Shown: positions 5,533 through 15,158 of the stretch, one piece after another
How positions within the stretch are numbered: the stretch's first letter is position 1
How the letters are laid out: each line of letters begins with the position of its first letter
From: a virus
Virus record (IMG/VR): IMGVR_UViG_3300021519_001384
Location: 1-22,882 of that record
Direction: 5' to 3' (one strand)
Length of the DNA stretch: 22,882 nucleotides
The notes under the pieces: model-generated
What the model saw: only the letters and a program-made list of their open reading frames with translations
The model's database searches: none
What the model was told of the DNA's origin: nothing
Translations under genes and position numbers: made by a program

Positions 5533-5838
5533 ATGAAAAAACTCCTTCTATCCTTGCTCCTAATCTCATCCGCCGCACTCGCTCAGGATGTGCCGCCGGT
5601 TGTCGATCCGACTCCTGCGCCGCCAGTCGCTCCGTCCATCAACATTTCCAGCGTGACCAATGTCGTCACCATCGTGGATCCGATCATCCTGACCGCCGAT
5701 CAGATGGCGGGGATCATCGCAATGATTCAAAGCAGTGGCATCTCAGCCAATGTGCCGATCACCACGAACAATTTGAATCGGGTGAGCGTGATGAAGAACG
5801 TTGATGGGACGTTCACTGTGAGGATTTCGGTCAACTAG
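5533..5838 (+). CDS. Small exported protein with Pro-rich linker
   Basis: 101 residues. The N-terminus is a strong Sec signal peptide (MKKLLLSLLLISSAALA, predicted cleavage before Gln18), followed by a Pro-rich, probably extended segment (DVPPVVDPTPAPPVAPS) and a small alpha/beta region (ILTADQMAGIIAMIQSSG, then NVDGTFTVRISVN). No family is recognised. It is the fourth signal-peptide gene in a row and lies just upstream of two holin-like genes. A periplasmic protein helping lysis or anchoring the preceding fibre-like proteins is possible, but there is no direct evidence. No Shine-Dalgarno is visible before the ATG. Confidence 0.65.
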   Translation: MKKLLLSLLLISSAALAQDVPPVVDPTPAPPVAPSINISSVTNVVTIVDPIILTADQMAGIIAMIQSSGISANVPITTNNLNRVSVMKNVDGTFTVRISVN

Positions 5839-5848
5839 CCAAGAATTT

Positions 5849-6037
5849 ATGAACCGAATACTGGAAGACTTCAAAGCGATGGGCGCTGCCGCGGTTGGCA
5901 TTGGCAGTCAATATGCCCCGCTTTCCACTTGGGTTCAGATTTCGCTTGGCCTTCTTTCCTGTATTTACCTGTTTATCCGAATTGTAAAAGCGATTCGGGA
6001 TTGGGATCAAAAAGACCGTAATGATGACATTTTATGA
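5849..6037 (+). CDS. Small single-TM membrane protein, holin candidate
   Basis: 62 residues. One transmembrane segment at about residues 28-46 (WVQISLGLLSCIYLFIRIV) is followed by a charged tail (KAIRDWDQKDRNDD). Size, single membrane span and a hydrophilic C-terminus rich in charge are typical of small phage holins, and the next gene is also holin-like. It would insert in the inner membrane and control timing of lysis. The start context is AGAATTTATG without Shine-Dalgarno; the stop overlaps the next gene's ATG by four bases. Holin function is inferred from size, topology and neighbours; other small membrane proteins could look the same. Confidence 0.5.
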   Translation: MNRILEDFKAMGAAAVGIGSQYAPLSTWVQISLGLLSCIYLFIRIVKAIRDWDQKDRNDDIL

Positions 6038-6618
6038 ATAAAGATCAAACAACCGCACTCGTCCACGGCCTGATTAAAATTGTTGGGTCCGCATTGGCAA
6101 CTCACGGCTTCACCAAAGCCGCAGGCACCTTGAATTCCGAAGACGTCATTGGGGCCATCGTCATGGTGATTGGCGTCATCCTCGCCCACACCGCCACCGG
6201 AGCTAAAAGCTCTCCTCCTGCTCCGCCAACCGCAGGCACCGGCACCACGACCATCGTCGGGCTTCTGGCCCTCATTGTTTTTACCGGTTGCTCCAACACG
6301 GTCTACAAGGGGGCGCAGAACCAGACGCTCATCACCGAGCGGTTTTTTGGCATCAAAGTTACGGCCACCAGCGGCAGCGGCACGCCTGAGGTTTGCCTAG
6401 GCGCGGGTTCATCCACCTTTGCTGTCAACCCCGTCAGCACCAATACGCTTTATGCTGCCCCGTCGTTTAGCACCGTGGAGTTCAGCCAGAGCTTGAACCC
6501 ATTTGCCACGTCGGGATCTGAAAGCGCCGGTTGGGGGAATGTCAGCGTGAATCTGTCCACCAACGCCACGGCGCAATCTGCCACCATCCTGCCCAAGTTG
6601 CCGATCAAACTTAAATGA
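6034..6618 (+). CDS. Holin-like domain fused to a lipobox-bearing segment
   Basis: 194 residues. Residues 1-56 (MNKDQTTALVHGLIKIVGSA, then SEDVIGAIVMVIGVILAHTA) resemble short phage holin-like proteins of the Pam3-gp28 type: an amphipathic segment, then one membrane span at about 37-54. A Pro/Gly/Thr linker (60-72) leads to a second hydrophobic stretch ending in a lipobox-like site, LLALIVFTGC, with Cys86 as possible lipidation residue, followed by a 108-residue Ser/Thr/Asn-rich soluble part. The second half looks like a lipoprotein that would normally begin its own gene, so this may be a fusion of two genes, or both products from one frame, although no good internal start is visible near residue 70. 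It could combine holin and outer-membrane (spanin-like) roles. The start overlaps the upstream gene by 4 nt. Confidence 0.5.
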   Translation: MNKDQTTALVHGLIKIVGSALATHGFTKAAGTLNSEDVIGAIVMVIGVILAHTATGAKSSPPAPPTAGTGTTTIVGLLALIVFTGCSNTVYKGAQNQTLITERFFGIKVTATSGSGTPEVCLGAGSSTFAVNPVSTNTLYAAPSFSTVEFSQSLNPFATSGSESAGWGNVSVNLSTNATAQSATILPKLPIKLK

Positions 6619-7382
6619 AGACTCACAAGCGTTACGGGTGGATTCGCCAACGGCCGGACTTCCGAGATCGAAAGTTTTCGGTGCCGCCTGCTTTGACGGA
6701 CTTGCCTGCGCGGGTGGATTTAACGCAGACCGAGTTCATGCCTCCAGTTTACAACCAAGGGGACATTGGCAGCTGCACGGCAAACGCCATCGCCGCCGCC
6801 ATTGATTACGAGCGGGCCAAACAAGGGCTTCCGTTCCTTACCCCAAGCCGATTGTTCATTTACGCCAATGAGCGCATCATGGAACAAACCAGCCTGTCCG
6901 AAGACAGCGGTGCCCAAATTCGAGACGGAATCAAAAGCGTAAGGGATAGCGGGGTCTGTTCAGAATCCACATGGAGCTATTCCGAGGATTTCTCCACCAA
7001 GCCCTCCCAAGCCGCCTACGACGAAGCGCTAAAGTGCAAGGTCTCTTCATACCACGCGGTTGGCCAAACGCTGTTGGAGATCAAAGGAGCGCTTGCGGCA
7101 GGGCTTCCTGTCACCTGCGGGATCACGGTTTACGAGTCGTTTGAATGGCCGTCCGTGACCGAAACCGGTTTTGTTCAGATTCCCAAGCCCGAAGAGACAT
7201 CGCTCGGCGGCCACGCCATCCTGCTGGTGGGCTACAACGAGGCCGACAAGGAGTTTTTTGGCCGCAACTCTTGGGGCTGCAACTGGGGTCAGCACGGGTA
7301 TTTTGCCATTCCCTACGATTACATCACCAATCCGCACCTCGCATCTGATTTTTGGGTCATCAGCAAAATTGAAACCGCATGA
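6615..7382 (+). CDS. Papain-like (C1 family) cysteine peptidase
   Basis: 255 residues, a complete C1 peptidase domain without a pro-region or signal peptide. The N-terminal 'RQRPDFRDRKF' and 'LPARVDLT' are typical of bacterial/phage C1 members. All catalytic residues are present: Gln48 of the oxyanion hole and Cys54 in 'NQGDIGSCTANA', His200 in 'LGGHAILLVGY', and Asn218 in 'GRNSWG'. It hydrolyses peptide bonds by a thiol mechanism; the substrate is unknown. It overlaps the holin/lipoprotein gene upstream (ATGA) and the fibre-like gene downstream (ATGA), so expression is probably coupled to both. Its slot behind the holin-like genes is where an endolysin usually lies, so a role in lysis, host envelope digestion or processing of the exported proteins is possible. 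Active enzyme is likely; its biological role is inference. Confidence 0.93.
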   Translation: MKTHKRYGWIRQRPDFRDRKFSVPPALTDLPARVDLTQTEFMPPVYNQGDIGSCTANAIAAAIDYERAKQGLPFLTPSRLFIYANERIMEQTSLSEDSGAQIRDGIKSVRDSGVCSESTWSYSEDFSTKPSQAAYDEALKCKVSSYHAVGQTLLEIKGALAAGLPVTCGITVYESFEWPSVTETGFVQIPKPEETSLGGHAILLVGYNEADKEFFGRNSWGCNWGQHGYFAIPYDYITNPHLASDFWVISKIETA

Positions 7383-9073
7383 GCAAACTGCTTGAAATTC
7401 TACGCACGGGCCGAGCGCCTGGCTACAAATGCAACAACGACGCCGTGGACCATGAAAGCGTCTATCACAAGGGGCCAAAAGGGCTGAAAGAAGTCGAGAA
7501 CCAGCCCAAGTGGAAAGGTGGTCCCAATCACAGTTCCAAGGACATCGCCAAACATTTTGGCATGAGCCGGGACTTCATCAAACACACATGGTCCAAAGCA
7601 GTCCCACTCTTGGCGTTCATGATGTGTTTGTCCGCGTTTGGGTCCGGTGAGATCACACCAGGATACGTGTTCACCACCACCGCATCTGCCGACACCCTTG
7701 GTAAGCTGGTAAGCCAAGCCACCATTGGCCCGACGTTCTACAGCGCCAAGACTGCAATCACCACGCCGTCGTTAAACGACACGCTGCTCGCGCTTCAGAA
7801 CGGGACTCTTTACCAAGAAAGCGTTTCGACATTCTTCAAGCCTTTGATCGCAAATCAGACCACGCTCTCCGGCGCTGCGAATGTTGGGGATCAGTTGCTC
7901 ATCTACAGCACCAACTCCCTTGGAAATTACAGCGTCACGGTGAGCAATCTTCTCAACGGAAGCTCAATCATTAACGCCAGCAGCTTGACGTTTGGCAACA
8001 GCAACGGGTTCAACCTTGGCAGCTACAGCGGAAGCCTTTTCAGCACCAATGACCCTCCTTACATCTCGATTTACGGCACAAACGGAATTCCAAAGCAAAT
8101 CGCTTTGACCAACCTGATCGCCAACGCGTCCGGAAACCTTGGAACAAACCTTTTGGTGCCGTATCACTTCACGCAGATATTTCGCCCGTATGATTACGGC
8201 TGGACGAATTTTTACACAAACGTGTGGGGCAACTACACCAACACGTTGGCGATCACCAACCTCTACGTCTACACCAATGGCACTCAGTTTCCGTATCCGA
8301 CGCTGGTGGACACCGACACGGTTCCGGTTTATTCCTTCACGCAAAAGACAAACACAACCGCCACGCTTGCCGCAGTTTATCAATACATGACCAACCGAAC
8401 ATCCAACCTTGGGTTGCCGTCATACACTTCTGCCCGCGTTCAGTTTCAAGGCATTGCAAACAGTTTGTTGGTAAGCAACAACGCTTCTGGAACGACAATA
8501 CAAGTCAGCAATAATCCAAGTTTTTCATTCACCGCTGGCACGATTTATCCGATGCTTTTGATGACAAACACAACGCAAACTCAAAAGATATTTTTGAACG
8601 TGTATACCAACCAAATTGTGTATGTGATTCCACAAGCAACCAACACCACCGTGTTCCAAGTTTACAGCAATTACACTTCCGCGTTGGCTGTAACAAATCC
8701 AATGGCTGTCAATCAACCTGGTTCTGGCGGGTTCAATTTTCTCTCTTTTGTAACGAACTACACCGCCTACAACTGTGATGTGATTCCCGTGGTAAACGTA
8801 TTGCCCGGCGCTTCAGGCCCAACGTATTTGCCCGGTGTTTACGACGTGTTTTTCAGAACAAACTCGTTAACCACAAACTATTACGTGAACGGAAGCTCAA
8901 CGCTCGCCTCTGGAAGACCAGGGATTGTATTCATAGAAAACCAAAACATATCAGGCGCTGGCGGGTATCTTCCGTCAACAAACCAATTTAGAGTTGGGTC
9001 CGGAGATCAAAACATTGCAAGCCCTTACGTAGCCAACTCCAGTTTGATGCACGTCATTGTAAACCCACAATAA
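7379..9073 (+). CDS. Fibre-like beta protein with internal export-like segment
   Basis: 564 residues from the ATG at 7379, which overlaps the protease stop. Residues 1-61 are hydrophilic and basic, ending in an HTH-like stretch (SSKDIAKHFGMSRDF). An in-frame ATG at 7562 (Met62) would give a typical signal peptide (two Lys, then AVPLLAFMMCLSAFG), so two products, or an N-terminal extension, are possible. After it, 'PGYVFTTTASADTLGKLVSQATI' (about 94-116) matches the start of many phage fibre proteins ('tFtdge.vta.kLn.Lv..atI'), and 'TTPSLNDTLLAL' follows as usual. The remainder is Asn/Thr/Ser/Tyr-rich beta sequence (NYTNTLAITNLYVYTNG). A receptor-binding or surface protein is likely. No Shine-Dalgarno is seen at either start. 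Confidence 0.65.
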   Translation: MSKLLEILRTGRAPGYKCNNDAVDHESVYHKGPKGLKEVENQPKWKGGPNHSSKDIAKHFGMSRDFIKHTWSKAVPLLAFMMCLSAFGSGEITPGYVFTTTASADTLGKLVSQATIGPTFYSAKTAITTPSLNDTLLALQNGTLYQESVSTFFKPLIANQTTLSGAANVGDQLLIYSTNSLGNYSVTVSNLLNGSSIINASSLTFGNSNGFNLGSYSGSLFSTNDPPYISIYGTNGIPKQIALTNLIANASGNLGTNLLVPYHFTQIFRPYDYGWTNFYTNVWGNYTNTLAITNLYVYTNGTQFPYPTLVDTDTVPVYSFTQKTNTTATLAAVYQYMTNRTSNLGLPSYTSARVQFQGIANSLLVSNNASGTTIQVSNNPSFSFTAGTIYPMLLMTNTTQTQKIFLNVYTNQIVYVIPQATNTTVFQVYSNYTSALAVTNPMAVNQPGSGGFNFLSFVTNYTAYNCDVIPVVNVLPGASGPTYLPGVYDVFFRTNSLTTNYYVNGSSTLASGRPGIVFIENQNISGAGGYLPSTNQFRVGSGDQNIASPYVANSSLMHVIVNPQ

Positions 9074-11855: not shown

Positions 11856-12313
11856 TCAGCGAAATGAAAGAATTTGCCGGTTTGAAGGCTCACTTGGATC
11901 AACTTGAGGCGTTTTGCCTTGAGAATCGAGGCAAGACAATGCCTTGGGCCAATGACCGCAACCTCCTTCGCCAATATTTGGAGTTTTGCCATTTTACGGG
12001 TAAGGTGGCGGTGTTGAGCAAAGACGGGAAAATCAACACGGCGATCTTTTGGTGGCCTGATCATTTTGAACACATTGAGGCAAAGCACGTCAACGGCATG
12101 AGCCAATTTGAGTGGAGGCCGATGGTCAACAACGCGGATTCCATTTTTGTTTCCGACGTCATCGGGTGCCACAAGGGTGTGAAGCAGATAGCAGCCAACG
12201 TGGTGTTGATGGACAAGCGCATAATGGGCATGCCAAAATACACATACCGGCACGGTAAACTATTGAAAATATCAAACAAGCTCTTCATGAGGGCTATTTT
12301 TGGAAAGCAATAA
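11852..12313 (+). CDS. Small protein with possible GNAT/HlyC-like acyltransferase fold
   Basis: 153 residues. Not confidently recognised. The middle, 'VLSKDGKINTAIFWWPDH' then 'NADSIFVSDVIGCHKGVKQI' (about residues 51-115), followed by 'MGMPKYTYRHGKLLKIS', has the strand-turn-helix order of a small GNAT or HlyC-type acyltransferase: a central 'D-V-I/V' strand, a Gly/Lys turn and a helix, then a closing strand with Arg-His-Gly-Lys. T7 gene 13, which also precedes gene 14, occupies the same place and affects assembly of the internal core, so this could modify or help load the internal proteins; that comparison is by position only. The ATG overlaps the upstream stop and is preceded by AAGGA (11838-11842). 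Confidence 0.4.
   Translation: MISEMKEFAGLKAHLDQLEAFCLENRGKTMPWANDRNLLRQYLEFCHFTGKVAVLSKDGKINTAIFWWPDHFEHIEAKHVNGMSQFEWRPMVNNADSIFVSDVIGCHKGVKQIAANVVLMDKRIMGMPKYTYRHGKLLKISNKLFMRAIFGKQ
12302..12307 (+). promoter_or_regulatory. Ribosome binding site (GGAAAG)
   Basis: GGAAAG lies 7 nt before ATG 12315, inside the end of the preceding gene. It favours ATG 12315 as the start over the in-frame TTG at 12300. Confidence 0.55.
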
Positions 12314-12314
12314 T

Positions 12315-13340
12315 ATGGGTGGATCACCGAAAATATCAGACCCGAACGAAGCGGCGGCGGCAGGGGTTCAGCGCCAGACGCAGCTCTACCCTTACGAATA
12401 CATGATCAACGCCCTTTCCCAGCTTGGGCAAAAGGGGACCGCAATCAACCCGGTGACCGGAAAGCCTGTCGCCCTTGACTTCACGGGACAAGGAACCGCC
12501 GACGTCCAAAACGTGTTTCAGGGCCAGATGGCCAAGACTCTTTTGGACATTCAACAAGGGATGGGGCCGCAATTTGTCGCTCAGCGTCTAAATGAACTGA
12601 AGCAGTCTGACCCTACCGGTTACGCCGCTTACCAGCAGTTGTTTGAACAAATCCAGCAGGAAGCCAATCAAGGAGGGCCAAACCTCCAGCTTTCAACGGA
12701 CACCCAAAATCAAATTCAAAACGTCTTGCAGGCCAGCAAGCAGCTCACGCCCGAGGAGTTGTCGCAAGTTCAGCAAGGGGTCAGAGGAAACCAGGTGCAA
12801 AGCGGACTCTACCTTGGGGCCATGCCAGCGCAACAAGAGGCATCCGCTGTGGTGAATGCGTTGGATCAAAAGCAAGCTGGCGCACAAAAGGAGGCGCAAT
12901 CATTCCTTCAGGCTGGAATCAGCCCGTCCGACATCCAATATCGCAAGACTCAACAGGACATGGCAAACCTTGGGGCGTTCATTGCCGGCCAGAATCCCAC
13001 CGCCCAGTTCAGTTCGATTGCGGGCGCTGGTCAAGGCGCTGCCCCTTATCCAGACACCGGCTATTCAACGCCCACCATGAACCTCGGTCAAATGGCGGGT
13101 CAAGGCATTCAAGAGGCCAATCAGGCGTATGGGATTCAGAACCAGTATTCTCAGTCTCAAGCCAATCCTTACATGGCCGGGCTGTCCACCGCGTTGCAAG
13201 GTGCGTCAACCGCTGCGGGATTGGGATGGCAACCGTTTCAACAGTCGTTCACCGCGCCTTCAGCGCCTGCTGGAACCGTAACATATGGCGGATCCTCTTA
13301 CGCGCCCGGGGCCGCGCCCGCCAGCGCATGGGGACAATAA
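12315..13340 (+). CDS. Internal-virion-like protein, Ala/Gln-rich (paralogue 1)
   Basis: 341 residues from ATG 12315; the in-frame TTG at 12300 has no upstream Shine-Dalgarno, while GGAAAG lies 7 nt before 12315. Composition is rich in Gln, Ala, Gly and Ser, with helical central parts (FVAQRLNELKQSDP, LSTDTQNQIQNVLQASKQL, LTPEELSQVQQGVRG). The C-terminus holds 'NPYMAGLSTALQGASTAAGL' and 'GWQPF' (from residue 284), closely matched in the gene at 13818. By order and composition it resembles T7 gp14-like internal core proteins, which are packaged in the head and ejected to form a channel across the outer membrane. That role is inference; no enzymatic motif is visible. Confidence 0.5.
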   Translation: MGGSPKISDPNEAAAAGVQRQTQLYPYEYMINALSQLGQKGTAINPVTGKPVALDFTGQGTADVQNVFQGQMAKTLLDIQQGMGPQFVAQRLNELKQSDPTGYAAYQQLFEQIQQEANQGGPNLQLSTDTQNQIQNVLQASKQLTPEELSQVQQGVRGNQVQSGLYLGAMPAQQEASAVVNALDQKQAGAQKEAQSFLQAGISPSDIQYRKTQQDMANLGAFIAGQNPTAQFSSIAGAGQGAAPYPDTGYSTPTMNLGQMAGQGIQEANQAYGIQNQYSQSQANPYMAGLSTALQGASTAAGLGWQPFQQSFTAPSAPAGTVTYGGSSYAPGAAPASAWGQ

Positions 13341-13843
13341 TGCTAATGGAATCGATTGTTCAATTAAAGACGCCTCACGAGTTTGCATTTGAATGTATGC
13401 AAACCGATGCCCAACGGGTGATCGACAAAATTGAAGACATCAGCGATCAACTTCCCCAAGTAGATTGCCCGTTGAATCATTTTTTTTATCCGGGACTTTA
13501 CGTCAAAGAGCGCAGGTTTCCGGCGGGGATTTTGGTAACAACCCCAGTTCACACCGAGGAACATCCCTACACCATAGTGAGCGGCACTGCAGTTGTTTGG
13601 ATTGAGGGGGTGGGTTGCAAAAAGTTGATTGGGCCTCATAATGGGGTGACAAAGCCTGGGACCCGAAGACTCATACTTTGCGAAACAGACGTGGTTTGGA
13701 TGACGTTTCACCCCAACCCAACTGACACCAAAGACCTTGAAGAGTTGGACAAAAGGCTGTTTTATCATTGGAAGGAAGAGCGCAGGAAAATCAACCAATT
13801 AGCCTTGAAAGAACAAAATGATCAAAACGAACCGACAGTTTAA
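13340..13843 (+). CDS. Cupin-fold phage protein
   Basis: 167 residues. ATG 13340 shares its A with the upstream TAA stop (TAATG) and is preceded by GGGGA (13330-13334), which decides the start. After a helical N-terminus the beta barrel shows 'RRFPAGILVTTPVHTEEH', with candidate metal ligands His71 and His75, then 'PYTIVSGTAVVWIEG', 'IGPHNGVTKPGTRRLILCE' and 'DVVWMTFHPN' with His124. This is the cupin pattern of a phage-encoded family I know by its 'H.y.iisG...v...pGtrR...e..vW.t.H'. The function of this family is not established. It lies between two paralogous internal-virion-like genes, overlapping the second by 26 nt. A structural or morphogenetic role is more likely than an enzymatic one. 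Confidence 0.75.
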   Translation: MLMESIVQLKTPHEFAFECMQTDAQRVIDKIEDISDQLPQVDCPLNHFFYPGLYVKERRFPAGILVTTPVHTEEHPYTIVSGTAVVWIEGVGCKKLIGPHNGVTKPGTRRLILCETDVVWMTFHPNPTDTKDLEELDKRLFYHWKEERRKINQLALKEQNDQNEPTV

Positions 13844-15158
13844 TTTTCACAATTACAACGGTGATTTTCTGACTCCACAATTTGGAGTTTTTTTGTTTGA
13901 GGAGCCTCAATTTCAAGCTGGTGTTGCAACCGCAATAGCCGCAGTTGGCCTTGCCGCCAGCATTGGTGAATTTGCCTACACTCAAGCCAACCAGCCAAAA
14001 GCCCCCAACCTTGCAGCGTCATCGGCCGCAATGGCCGACCTTCAGGCACAACTGCTGCCTGTGGTTCGCGGGATGCAAGCCGCGGCTGAGACCGGCGGGG
14101 AATCTTTAAAGCCTGGCTTTACCCAAACGACGGTAGGCGGAAGCGAAAGGGCAAGAATTCAAGCTGAGATTGATGCCGTAAAGAAAAACCAGCCGTGGAT
14201 GGGATCAAGAGCGGCAACGGCGCAAGCTGCAGCAGACCCCAATAGCCCCGGAAACAAAAAGAACTCGGCAGATATAGCAAGGCTTACCGAAGAGCTTAAA
14301 AACACGCCTGAAGGCGGCGGCGTGGTTTACAAAGACGATAAAGGGCGAACTGTTCCAAAAGAAAGCGCGATGGTCAGCTTTGCTGGGATGAGCCAAGCCG
14401 ACATCCAAGGCGGGTTGATGAAGCAGATGGCCGAGGGCCAGCTTGCCAACGAAGCCAAATACGGGCCTGATTTTATCAAATCTGCTTTGGAACAAGAAAA
14501 GCTGGCCAACCCCGAGCAATTTGCCGCTCGTGAACAGCTTTACCAAGACATCCAAAAGCAGATTCAAGCGCCGCCCACAAGCCCGGTGGCCGCAGAGCTT
14601 CAGCAGCGAGCAGCCGCAAAGGTGGCAGCAGGATCTGGCCTGACGCCCGAGGAGCAGGCAATGCTGGACATCGCGGTCAAAGGGTCCACCGCCGCGCAGG
14701 GAGTTCCTGAAGGAACTGACTTTTCCAAGGCGCTTACCACAGGGATGGCCGGCACCCAAAGGCAAATGGCTTCAGCGGGAGCTGGGATGAACTGGTTGGC
14801 AAGCGGTCAGACACCAGAGGACATCGCCTACCGAGCGCGGCAGCAGAATCTAAGCAACCTGAGCAGCTACGTGGGCGGCAGAACGCCGCAAAGCCAGTTT
14901 AGGGCGCTTTCAGGGGCGCAACAGGGCGCAGCACCCATGGCGCAGGCTCCAGCCCTTCCTGGCTTCAATATGGGCGCTGGTCAGCAGGGCGCGGGAGCAG
15001 GACTTGCGACATATGGACAACAGGTGCAAGCTGCAATCAACACACCGAACCCTTGGATGGCGGGATTGAGCGGGGCGATGGGTGCCGCAAATGTGGCAGG
15101 AAAAGCCGGGTGGAGTCCGTTTGCCACTCAGAGCCAAACATCAGGCGTAGCCATTTAA
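13818..15158 (+). CDS. Internal-virion-like protein, Ala/Gln-rich (paralogue 2)
   Basis: 446 residues if ATG 13818 is used; this overlaps the cupin gene by 26 nt and its first 25 residues look atypical (Phe/Asn-rich). A TTG at 13893 with GGAG 5 nt upstream would give a shorter N-terminus directly before the hydrophobic helix 'FQAGVATAIAAVGLAASIG'. Such a helix near the start is typical of T7 gp14-like proteins. A large Ala/Gln/Glu-rich helical region follows (AKYGPDFIKSALEQEKLANP). The C-terminal 60 residues match the gene at 12315: 'QQGAAP' and 'NPWMAGLSGAMGAANVAGKA', 'GWSPF' from residue 411. Probable ejected internal protein. Alternative start: 13893, uncertain. Confidence 0.5.
   Translation: MIKTNRQFNFHNYNGDFLTPQFGVFLFEEPQFQAGVATAIAAVGLAASIGEFAYTQANQPKAPNLAASSAAMADLQAQLLPVVRGMQAAAETGGESLKPGFTQTTVGGSERARIQAEIDAVKKNQPWMGSRAATAQAAADPNSPGNKKNSADIARLTEELKNTPEGGGVVYKDDKGRTVPKESAMVSFAGMSQADIQGGLMKQMAEGQLANEAKYGPDFIKSALEQEKLANPEQFAAREQLYQDIQKQIQAPPTSPVAAELQQRAAAKVAAGSGLTPEEQAMLDIAVKGSTAAQGVPEGTDFSKALTTGMAGTQRQMASAGAGMNWLASGQTPEDIAYRARQQNLSNLSSYVGGRTPQSQFRALSGAQQGAAPMAQAPALPGFNMGAGQQGAGAGLATYGQQVQAAINTPNPWMAGLSGAMGAANVAGKAGWSPFATQSQTSGVAI
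13872..13894 (+). terminator. Intrinsic-terminator-like hairpin at the start of paralogue 2
   Basis: A perfect 6-bp stem (ACTCCA 13872-13877, loop CAATT, TGGAGT 13883-13888) is followed by an unbroken T run (13888-13894). It lies 28 nt after the cupin stop and covers the GGAG that would serve a TTG start at 13893. It could act as a partial transcription terminator after the cupin gene, or as a structure hiding the ribosome site. Confidence 0.5.

What the first reader, a model, noticed from the sequence alone, without database searches (positions are those of the whole stretch)
5849..7382. Papain-like protease in the endolysin position of a lysis-like cassette
Two holin-like genes, the second with a lipoprotein-like part, are directly followed and overlapped by a C1 cysteine peptidase with an intact Gln/Cys/His/Asn active site. 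No muramidase, amidase or transglycosylase is visible in the window. Papain-family enzymes are not classical endolysins, so either lysis uses a peptidase that attacks surface-layer or envelope proteins, or the enzyme processes the neighbouring exported proteins. The active site is seen; the lysis role is inference.
Basis: partly seen in the sequence, partly recalled or inferred. Interest (0 to 1): 0.58.

Follow-up and report, generated by a model that had tools for sequence, protein, structure and literature searches.

The report
Papain-type protease in phage lysis cassette
An uncultured phage carries an intact papain-like protease tightly coupled to its holin gene; related arrangements elsewhere suggest it is a helper that cuts envelope proteins when the cell bursts, rather than a replacement for the usual cell-wall enzyme, but no activity has been tested.

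Summary
Window 5849-6037, 6034-6618 and 6615-7382 are two membrane genes and a C1 peptidase with Gln48/Cys54/His200/Asn218, linked by ATGA overlaps. The protease is xylellain-type: closest solved structure 3ois at 42% identity; model pLDDT 89.9. The lysis-cassette reading is supported. The second membrane gene has a homologue in another phage (L028) that passes the Phage_holin_10 cut-off, and L028 keeps the order g8-hol1-hol2-C1 although synonymous sites are saturated. In Gordonia phages and Mufasa8, C1 homologues sit in annotated lysis cassettes; in phage MMB025 the C1 domain is fused to a glycosyl-hydrolase-like and a peptidoglycan-binding domain.

The stronger claim, that C1 takes the endolysin's place, is not supported. 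The window is a 22.9-kb fragment without terminase or portal. Syntenic relatives lack C1. Other cassettes with C1 often carry a murein hydrolase beside it. Most viral C1 genes lie outside lysis cassettes: neighbours at 59 loci showed no general lysis enrichment over control genes.

Best reading: an accessory, holin-released protease acting on envelope proteins (inferred, about 0.5). Xylellain-type proteases in tailed phages are already published, so this is a variant of a known kind.

The parts
5533..5838 (+). g8, 101-aa exported small protein (signal-peptide-like N-terminus by eye); first gene of the block shared with L028
   Evidence: 97% identical over 67 residues to L028; about 95% DNA identity over 5536-5859
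5849..6037 (+). hol1, 62-aa one-TM holin-like protein
   Evidence: 69% identical in L028; small TM ORFs of like size in the same slot of G001 and L025; no family match
6034..6618 (+). hol2, 194 aa: Phage_holin_10-like N-terminal part followed in one frame by a lipobox and a 109-residue lipoprotein-like part
   Evidence: own match E 0.048; L028 homologue passes PF23987 cut-off, 32.4 bits; alignment 68%
6615..7382 (+). C1, 255-aa xylellain-type papain-family (C1A) peptidase, no signal peptide or TM by eye; catalytic Gln48 (6756-6758), Cys54 (6774-6776), His200 (7212-7214), Asn218 (7266-7268)
   Evidence: PF00112 58.7 bits; 3ois E 1.7e-54; model pLDDT 89.9, pTM 0.89; Foldseek 3ois TM 0.89
7379..9073 (+). 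g12, 564-aa protein with conserved N-terminal ~75 residues, overlapping C1 by ATGA; right border of the variable slot
   Evidence: conserved in G001, G002, L025; the gene just upstream differs in each

Best explanation
The gene is a xylellain-type C1A cysteine peptidase recruited into a phage lysis module. It is made in the cytoplasm together with two holin-like proteins (gene overlaps: shown). When the holin opens the inner membrane, the protease reaches the periplasm and cuts envelope proteins such as peptidoglycan-bound or outer-membrane lipoproteins, or a surface layer (inferred). It acts as an accessory lysis enzyme; murein itself is probably degraded by a separate enzyme encoded outside this fragment (inferred from relatives).
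For: Overlapping genes hol1/hol2/C1. The holin family match in the L028 homologue passes its cut-off, and a PF23987 holin lies in the same slot of G001 at 44 bits. The order g8-hol1-hol2-C1 is kept in an otherwise different phage, while C1 shows dN 0.34 with saturated dS, so the linkage is old and C1 is under purifying selection. C1 homologues lie in lysis cassettes of Gordonia phages GMA2, Mareelih, Morgana and Lilbeanie (next to holin and lysin A genes), Arthrobacter phage Mufasa8 and Thermoanaerobacterium phage THSA-485A. In phage MMB025 the C1 domain is fused to Rv2525c_GlyHyd-like and PG_binding_1 domains. Metagenomic cassettes: L074 (SleB-C1-TM-lipoprotein), L095 (transglycosylase-like-C1-TM/spanin-like, by eye; one neighbour matched SLT), L048 (amidase-TM-TM-C1), L099 and L087 (lipoprotein-C1 overlap beside TM genes). 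A small TM gene adjoins C1 in 10 of 63 non-redundant viral loci against 13 of 212 control genes (Fisher p 0.02).
Against: Viral C1 genes in general are not lysis genes. PHROG and Pfam scans of 149 of 164 operonic neighbours (59 loci) showed terminases, RNA ligases, methyltransferases and others, with one SLT and one Phage_lysozyme2 match in the 25 of 63 Pfam families listed. The 135 control ORFs showed amidase (2), endolysin (2) and endolysin (1) PHROGs in their 25 of 195 listed families, so as many or more. C1 is beside tRNA or HNH genes or isolated in Sycamore, Circinus, Indlovu and GX15bay, and among hypotheticals in FLC9. The nearest rows after L028 in the tree (L036, L043, L030) lie by a terminase or among unrecognised genes. 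Against bacterial C1 loci the TM-neighbour difference is not significant (10 of 63 against 5 of 66, p 0.17). No substrate or activity data exist.
Confidence: 0.5

Rival explanations
1. C1 is a non-lysis passenger or structural-module protease: it processes or trims neighbouring exported/tail proteins (g4-g8, g12) or acts on host proteins, and sits in a variable slot before g12 by chance of insertion.
For: The slot just upstream of g12 is filled by different genes in each syntenic relative, each overlapping g12 by 4 bases: lipoprotein-like in G001, a 170-aa PHROG_1128 protein in G002, an IPT/TIG-domain protein in L025. Most viral C1 genes are outside lysis modules.
Against: The block hol1-hol2-C1 is kept in L028, which has a different virion module and no g12 after C1. 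C1 was recovered inside lysis cassettes of phages of other hosts.
Confidence: 0.33
2. C1 is the phage's sole endolysin and cleaves the peptide stems of peptidoglycan, so a protease replaces the muramidase or amidase.
For: No murein hydrolase family in 20 of 21 window ORFs; Peptidase_C1 is the only lytic-like family among the listed Pfam matches of 52 ORFs of G008. Papain-fold domains (C39-like N5) are proposed catalytic domains of mycobacteriophage lysin A (PMC3314691, passages seen).
Against: The window is a fragment and G008 may be one. G008 has a candidate exported SleB-like ORF, L108:1571-1939 minus (single-sequence searches missed it; its two-row profile with L074 hits SleB at E 3.5e-4; the Hydrolase_2 model did not hit it). 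Syntenic G001 lacks C1 and has a small exported lysozyme-like candidate elsewhere (weak). Cassettes with C1 elsewhere often hold canonical lysins too. The fold matches proteolytic C1A enzymes, and no NlpC/P60 or CHAP model matched.
Confidence: 0.1
3. C1 is a virion-associated enzyme used at entry rather than exit.
For: It lies amid late structural genes, directly before g12 and the connector/tail genes.
Against: No fusion to a structural domain in the window, and tight coupling to holin genes here and in L028.
Confidence: 0.07

Closest known systems
Xylellain (Xylella fastidiosa C1A peptidase, PDB 3ois) and the xylellain-type short bacterial C1A group
   Same: 42% identity, model TM-score 0.89; same catalytic residues and the same short N-terminal YGW..PD.RD segment instead of a long pro-domain
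   Different: Encoded by a phage and overlapping a holin gene; function of neither is established here
'Cysteine protease' of Gordonia phage lysis cassettes (GMA2, Mareelih, Morgana, Lilbeanie)
   Same: C1-family relative between lysin A genes and the holin, with gene overlap in Morgana and Lilbeanie
   Different: GMA2 C1 is only 26-31% identical to the window's; in the tree this actinophage group is separated on a long branch; those cassettes hold lysin A and sometimes lysin B
N5/C39-type papain-family domains of actinobacteriophage lysin A (for example BetterKatz gp29)
   Same: papain-fold cysteine peptidase used as a lysin domain (PMC3314691, PMC4982276; passages seen)
   Different: C39-like rather than C1A as described there; in BetterKatz paired with a GH19 lysin
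Alicyclobacillus phage MMB025 'endolysin' (754 aa)
   Same: N-terminal C1 domain 29% identical to the window protein
   Different: fused to glycosyl-hydrolase-like and peptidoglycan-binding domains; the window protein is a single domain
Canonical holin-endolysin cassette
   Same: holin gene directly followed and overlapped by a soluble hydrolase without signal peptide
   Different: hydrolase is a C1A peptidase and not a recognised murein hydrolase

Membership tests
Papain family C1A, xylellain type | PF00112 match over the curated cut-off | tested here: met
   58.7 bits against 20.7
Papain family C1A, xylellain type | Gln, Cys, His, Asn active site | tested here: met
   invariant Q48 C54 H200 N218 in 22 of 22
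Papain family C1A, xylellain type | fold and short N-terminal segment of xylellain | tested here: met
   3ois TM 0.89 over 265 columns; aligned from residue 5
Papain family C1A, xylellain type | proteolytic activity | not testable with these tools
   sequence and model only
Phage_holin_10 (Pam3 gp28 family) | PF23987 match over cut-off for hol2 | tested here: inconclusive
   window protein 14.1 bits, below 27; L028 homologue 32.4 bits, above
Phage endolysin | hydrolysis of peptidoglycan | not testable with these tools
   no assay
Phage endolysin | match to a known murein hydrolase family (amidase, muramidase, transglycosylase, NlpC/P60, CHAP) | tested here: not met
   four Pfam families listed for the protein, none of these
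Phage endolysin | gene in a holin cassette and cytoplasmic, awaiting holin release | tested here: met
   position and overlaps; lack of a signal peptide judged by eye only
Phage endolysin (sole lysin) | no other murein hydrolase in the whole genome | tested here: inconclusive
   window is a fragment; relatives G001 and G008 have weak exported candidates

The most novel reading that the evidence does not exclude
A holin fused in one frame to a lipoprotein, plus a holin-released papain-type protease, make up a complete lysis system without a murein hydrolase, destroying the envelope by cutting its proteins.
Probability: 0.07. Interest if true: 0.85.

Novelty: new variant of a known kind. Interest (0 to 1): 0.42.

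Why it matters
If C1 proteases are accessory lysis enzymes, lysis of some hosts would need a proteolytic step besides holin, endolysin and spanin. The Gordonia phages that carry a C1 relative inside their cassettes grow on laboratory strains, so the question can be tested by gene removal now. I found no experiment on this role in the searches made (listed under Tried and rejected).

Tried and rejected
Single-protein scans with the window C1 found no relative in viral contigs or genome contigs; an alignment of three rows did. Rejected as a general rule: 'viral C1 means lysis gene' (see evidence against). Rejected as proof: absence of a murein hydrolase in the window, because the record is a fragment. 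Not concluded: the G002 slot protein L019:18371-18883 minus looked to me like a permuted NlpC/P60-type protein, but Pfam gave nothing, PHROG_1128 carries an unrelated name, PDB and phage searches found nothing, and its single-sequence model was poor (pLDDT 38). Not concluded: G001's 107-aa exported ORF as lysozyme (Glucosaminidase E 0.026; PDB search gave only one unrelated weak hit; relatives in four Manatee Spring phage records without function, two of them read). The hol2 scan of viral contigs gave only L028's contig; the scan with the start of g12 gave only G001 and G002. MCP search of the phages collection found no match. Host not determined.

Literature: PMC10380794 (passages) already reports xylellain-type C1A acquisition by Myo- and Siphoviridae; PMC9671378 (find only) on G. 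rubripertincta lysis cassettes has no hit for cysteine, papain or cathepsin; PMC9096620 (passages): its endopeptidase is M23, so not a precedent; PMC9703825 (passages): papain-like amidase is a tail gene; PMC2873492 (passages) concerns C10 proteases; PMC10318531 and PMC9862828 (passages) gave no C1A lysis case. Ten paper searches listed no experiment on a C1A protease in phage lysis; this covers only the open library held.

Full report
What is there. The window is the whole of one linear viral record of 22,882 bases. It holds a scaffold-like gene, a major head protein (PHROG_1357, E 1.8e-26), a run of exported small proteins, the block under study, a SU10-adaptor-like protein, a head-closure-like protein and a 2144-aa protein. 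I saw no terminase, portal or replication gene, so the record is a fragment. The finding's three genes are at the stated places and joined by ATGA overlaps; C1 also overlaps the next gene, g12.

The protease. It matches PF00112 at 58.7 bits and xylellain 3ois at E 1.7e-54. Gln48, Cys54, His200, Asn218 and Trp220 are invariant in 22 of 22 aligned sequences. The AlphaFold2 model has pLDDT 89.9 and pTM 0.89; its best Foldseek match is 3ois, TM 0.89 and 42% identity. In BFVD the best matches are Peptidase C1 entries of giant viruses and uncultured tailed phages; lower ones are named 'Peptidoglycan binding-like' and 'N acetylmuramidase (Fragment)', and 'Endolysin' of Gordonia phage OneUp appears weakly. 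By eye the protein has no signal peptide.

The membrane genes. hol2 matches Phage_holin_10 below the cut-off (14.1 bits). Its homologue in L028, 68% identical, reaches 32.4 bits against a cut-off of 27. In syntenic relative G001 a 75-aa protein in the same slot reaches 44 bits. In the window and L028 the holin-like part runs on in frame into a lipobox and a lipoprotein-like part; in G001, G002 and L025 small TM proteins and lipoprotein-like or exported proteins are separate ORFs.

Syntenic relatives. Three contigs share the gene order (MCP 68-79% identical): G001, G002 and L025. C1 is absent from G001 and G002 by PF00112 and from L025 by tblastn. The slot before g12 holds a lipoprotein-like ORF in G001, a 170-aa PHROG_1128 protein in G002 and an IPT/TIG protein in L025, each overlapping g12. 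The membrane genes of the cassette are therefore kept while the gene in the C1 place varies.

A second carrier of the module. L028 lies in G008, a 42-kb record with Mu-type portal, terminase and GP7 major capsid protein, hence another kind of phage. It holds g8 (97% over 67 residues), hol1 (69%), hol2 (68%) and C1 (64%) in the same order. DNA identity in 75-base steps is about 95% across g8, 91% in one part of hol2 and about 30-75% elsewhere; C1 has pN 0.27 and pS 0.91 (dS saturated). The linkage is thus old and C1 is under purifying selection, while g8 was shared more recently. Pfam scan of 52 of 58 G008 ORFs listed Peptidase_C1 and Phage_holin_10 and no murein hydrolase in the 25 of 29 families shown. 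A 122-aa exported ORF on the other strand resembles SleB; the evidence is weak: no Pfam, PHROG or PDB hit alone, but SleB 4f55 at E 3.5e-4 with a two-row profile whose other row, L074, itself matches Hydrolase_2 over its cut-off.

Other phages. tblastn with the window protein found 24 phage records, and with the GMA2 protein 54. Of 14 neighbourhoods read, two have no annotation. Of the other 12, seven show C1 in a lysis context: GMA2, THSA-485A (directly after a GH25 lysozyme), Mufasa8, Mareelih, Morgana, Lilbeanie, and MMB025 as a fusion. Five do not: FLC9, Indlovu, Sycamore, Circinus, GX15bay. These 12 were picked by me and are not independent: four are Gordonia phages and form one long-branched group with Mufasa8, Indlovu, Sycamore and Circinus.

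Survey and controls. After removing near-copies, 66 viral and 69 bacterial loci remained. A small TM gene adjoins C1 in 10 of 63 viral loci and 13 of 212 control genes (p 0.02), and in 5 of 66 bacterial loci and 10 of 131 controls; viral against bacterial gives p 0.17. L028 was not counted as positive because the gene caller lengthened hol2. Among the positives, L074, L095 and L048 have a murein hydrolase close by (for L095 the SLT match is assigned by eye). But the neighbour scan of 149 proteins showed no general lysis signal, and control ORFs showed more endolysin/amidase PHROGs in the listed part. On a tree of 148 rows the 14 lysis rows I chose need 11 label changes, at least 4 forced by well supported branches: association with lysis genes arose or was lost several times.

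Interpretation. Position, old linkage to a holin, cytoplasmic form, and repeated presence in lysis cassettes favour a lysis role. Presence of canonical lysins beside it elsewhere, and its absence from syntenic relatives, favour an accessory role. The C1A fold favours proteins as substrate. The last step, which protein is cut, is inference. Confidence 0.5.

What is known. Acquisition of xylellain-type C1A peptidases by Myo- and Siphoviridae is in print; the passages I saw give no role (PMC10380794). Papain-family C39-like domains in lysin A are in print (PMC3314691, passages), as is a cysteine protease-like lysin in BetterKatz (PMC4982276, passage; annotated as N5 domain). The new element is the C1A protease coupled to a holin-lipoprotein fusion in an uncultured phage group, and the repeated pattern across phages.

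Noticed in passing
window 6034-6618; L028:7405-7998: A holin-like domain and a lipobox-bearing lipoprotein part are fused in one frame in both phages, whereas relatives encode them apart. Signal peptidase II cleavage would split them; no close in-frame start was seen before the lipobox.
   Followed up: partly
L108:1571-1939 (minus), in G008: 122-aa exported ORF with SleB-like motifs (GEAGGEP, GQTTFYK); candidate murein hydrolase missed by Pfam and PHROG.
   Followed up: partly
L017:10633-10956 (minus), in G001: 107-aa exported ORF just after the giant gene, lysozyme-like by eye (AIYTQEGG...YGI), with unannotated relatives in Manatee Spring phages (L192:3627-3977, L193:4896-5318).
   Followed up: partly
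L018:7315-7461 and L025:11408-11662: Lipoprotein-like ORFs partly embedded in another frame of a small ORF, in the manner of embedded spanin pairs.
   Followed up: no
L019:18371-18883 (minus), in G002: 170-aa protein in the place that C1 has in the window; matches PHROG_1128, named 'enoyl-CoA hydratase/carnithine racemase-like', a name that looks wrong to me. A like-named gene stands four genes upstream of the C1 endolysin in phage MMB025 (L002).
   Followed up: partly
window 12300-13340 and 13818-15158: g16 and g18 look like paralogues: each also matches the other's place in G001 and G002 by tblastn.
   Followed up: no
L036:5834-6205, L096:9624-10049, L099:9043-9591: Proteins resembling DUF1353 (DGASIP-type motif, by eye) lie within two genes of C1 in three loci.
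   Followed up: no
L196, L197, L198 (Gordonia phages): A small unnamed gene lies between lysin A and the C1 protease in three Gordonia phage groups; its role is not annotated.
   Followed up: no
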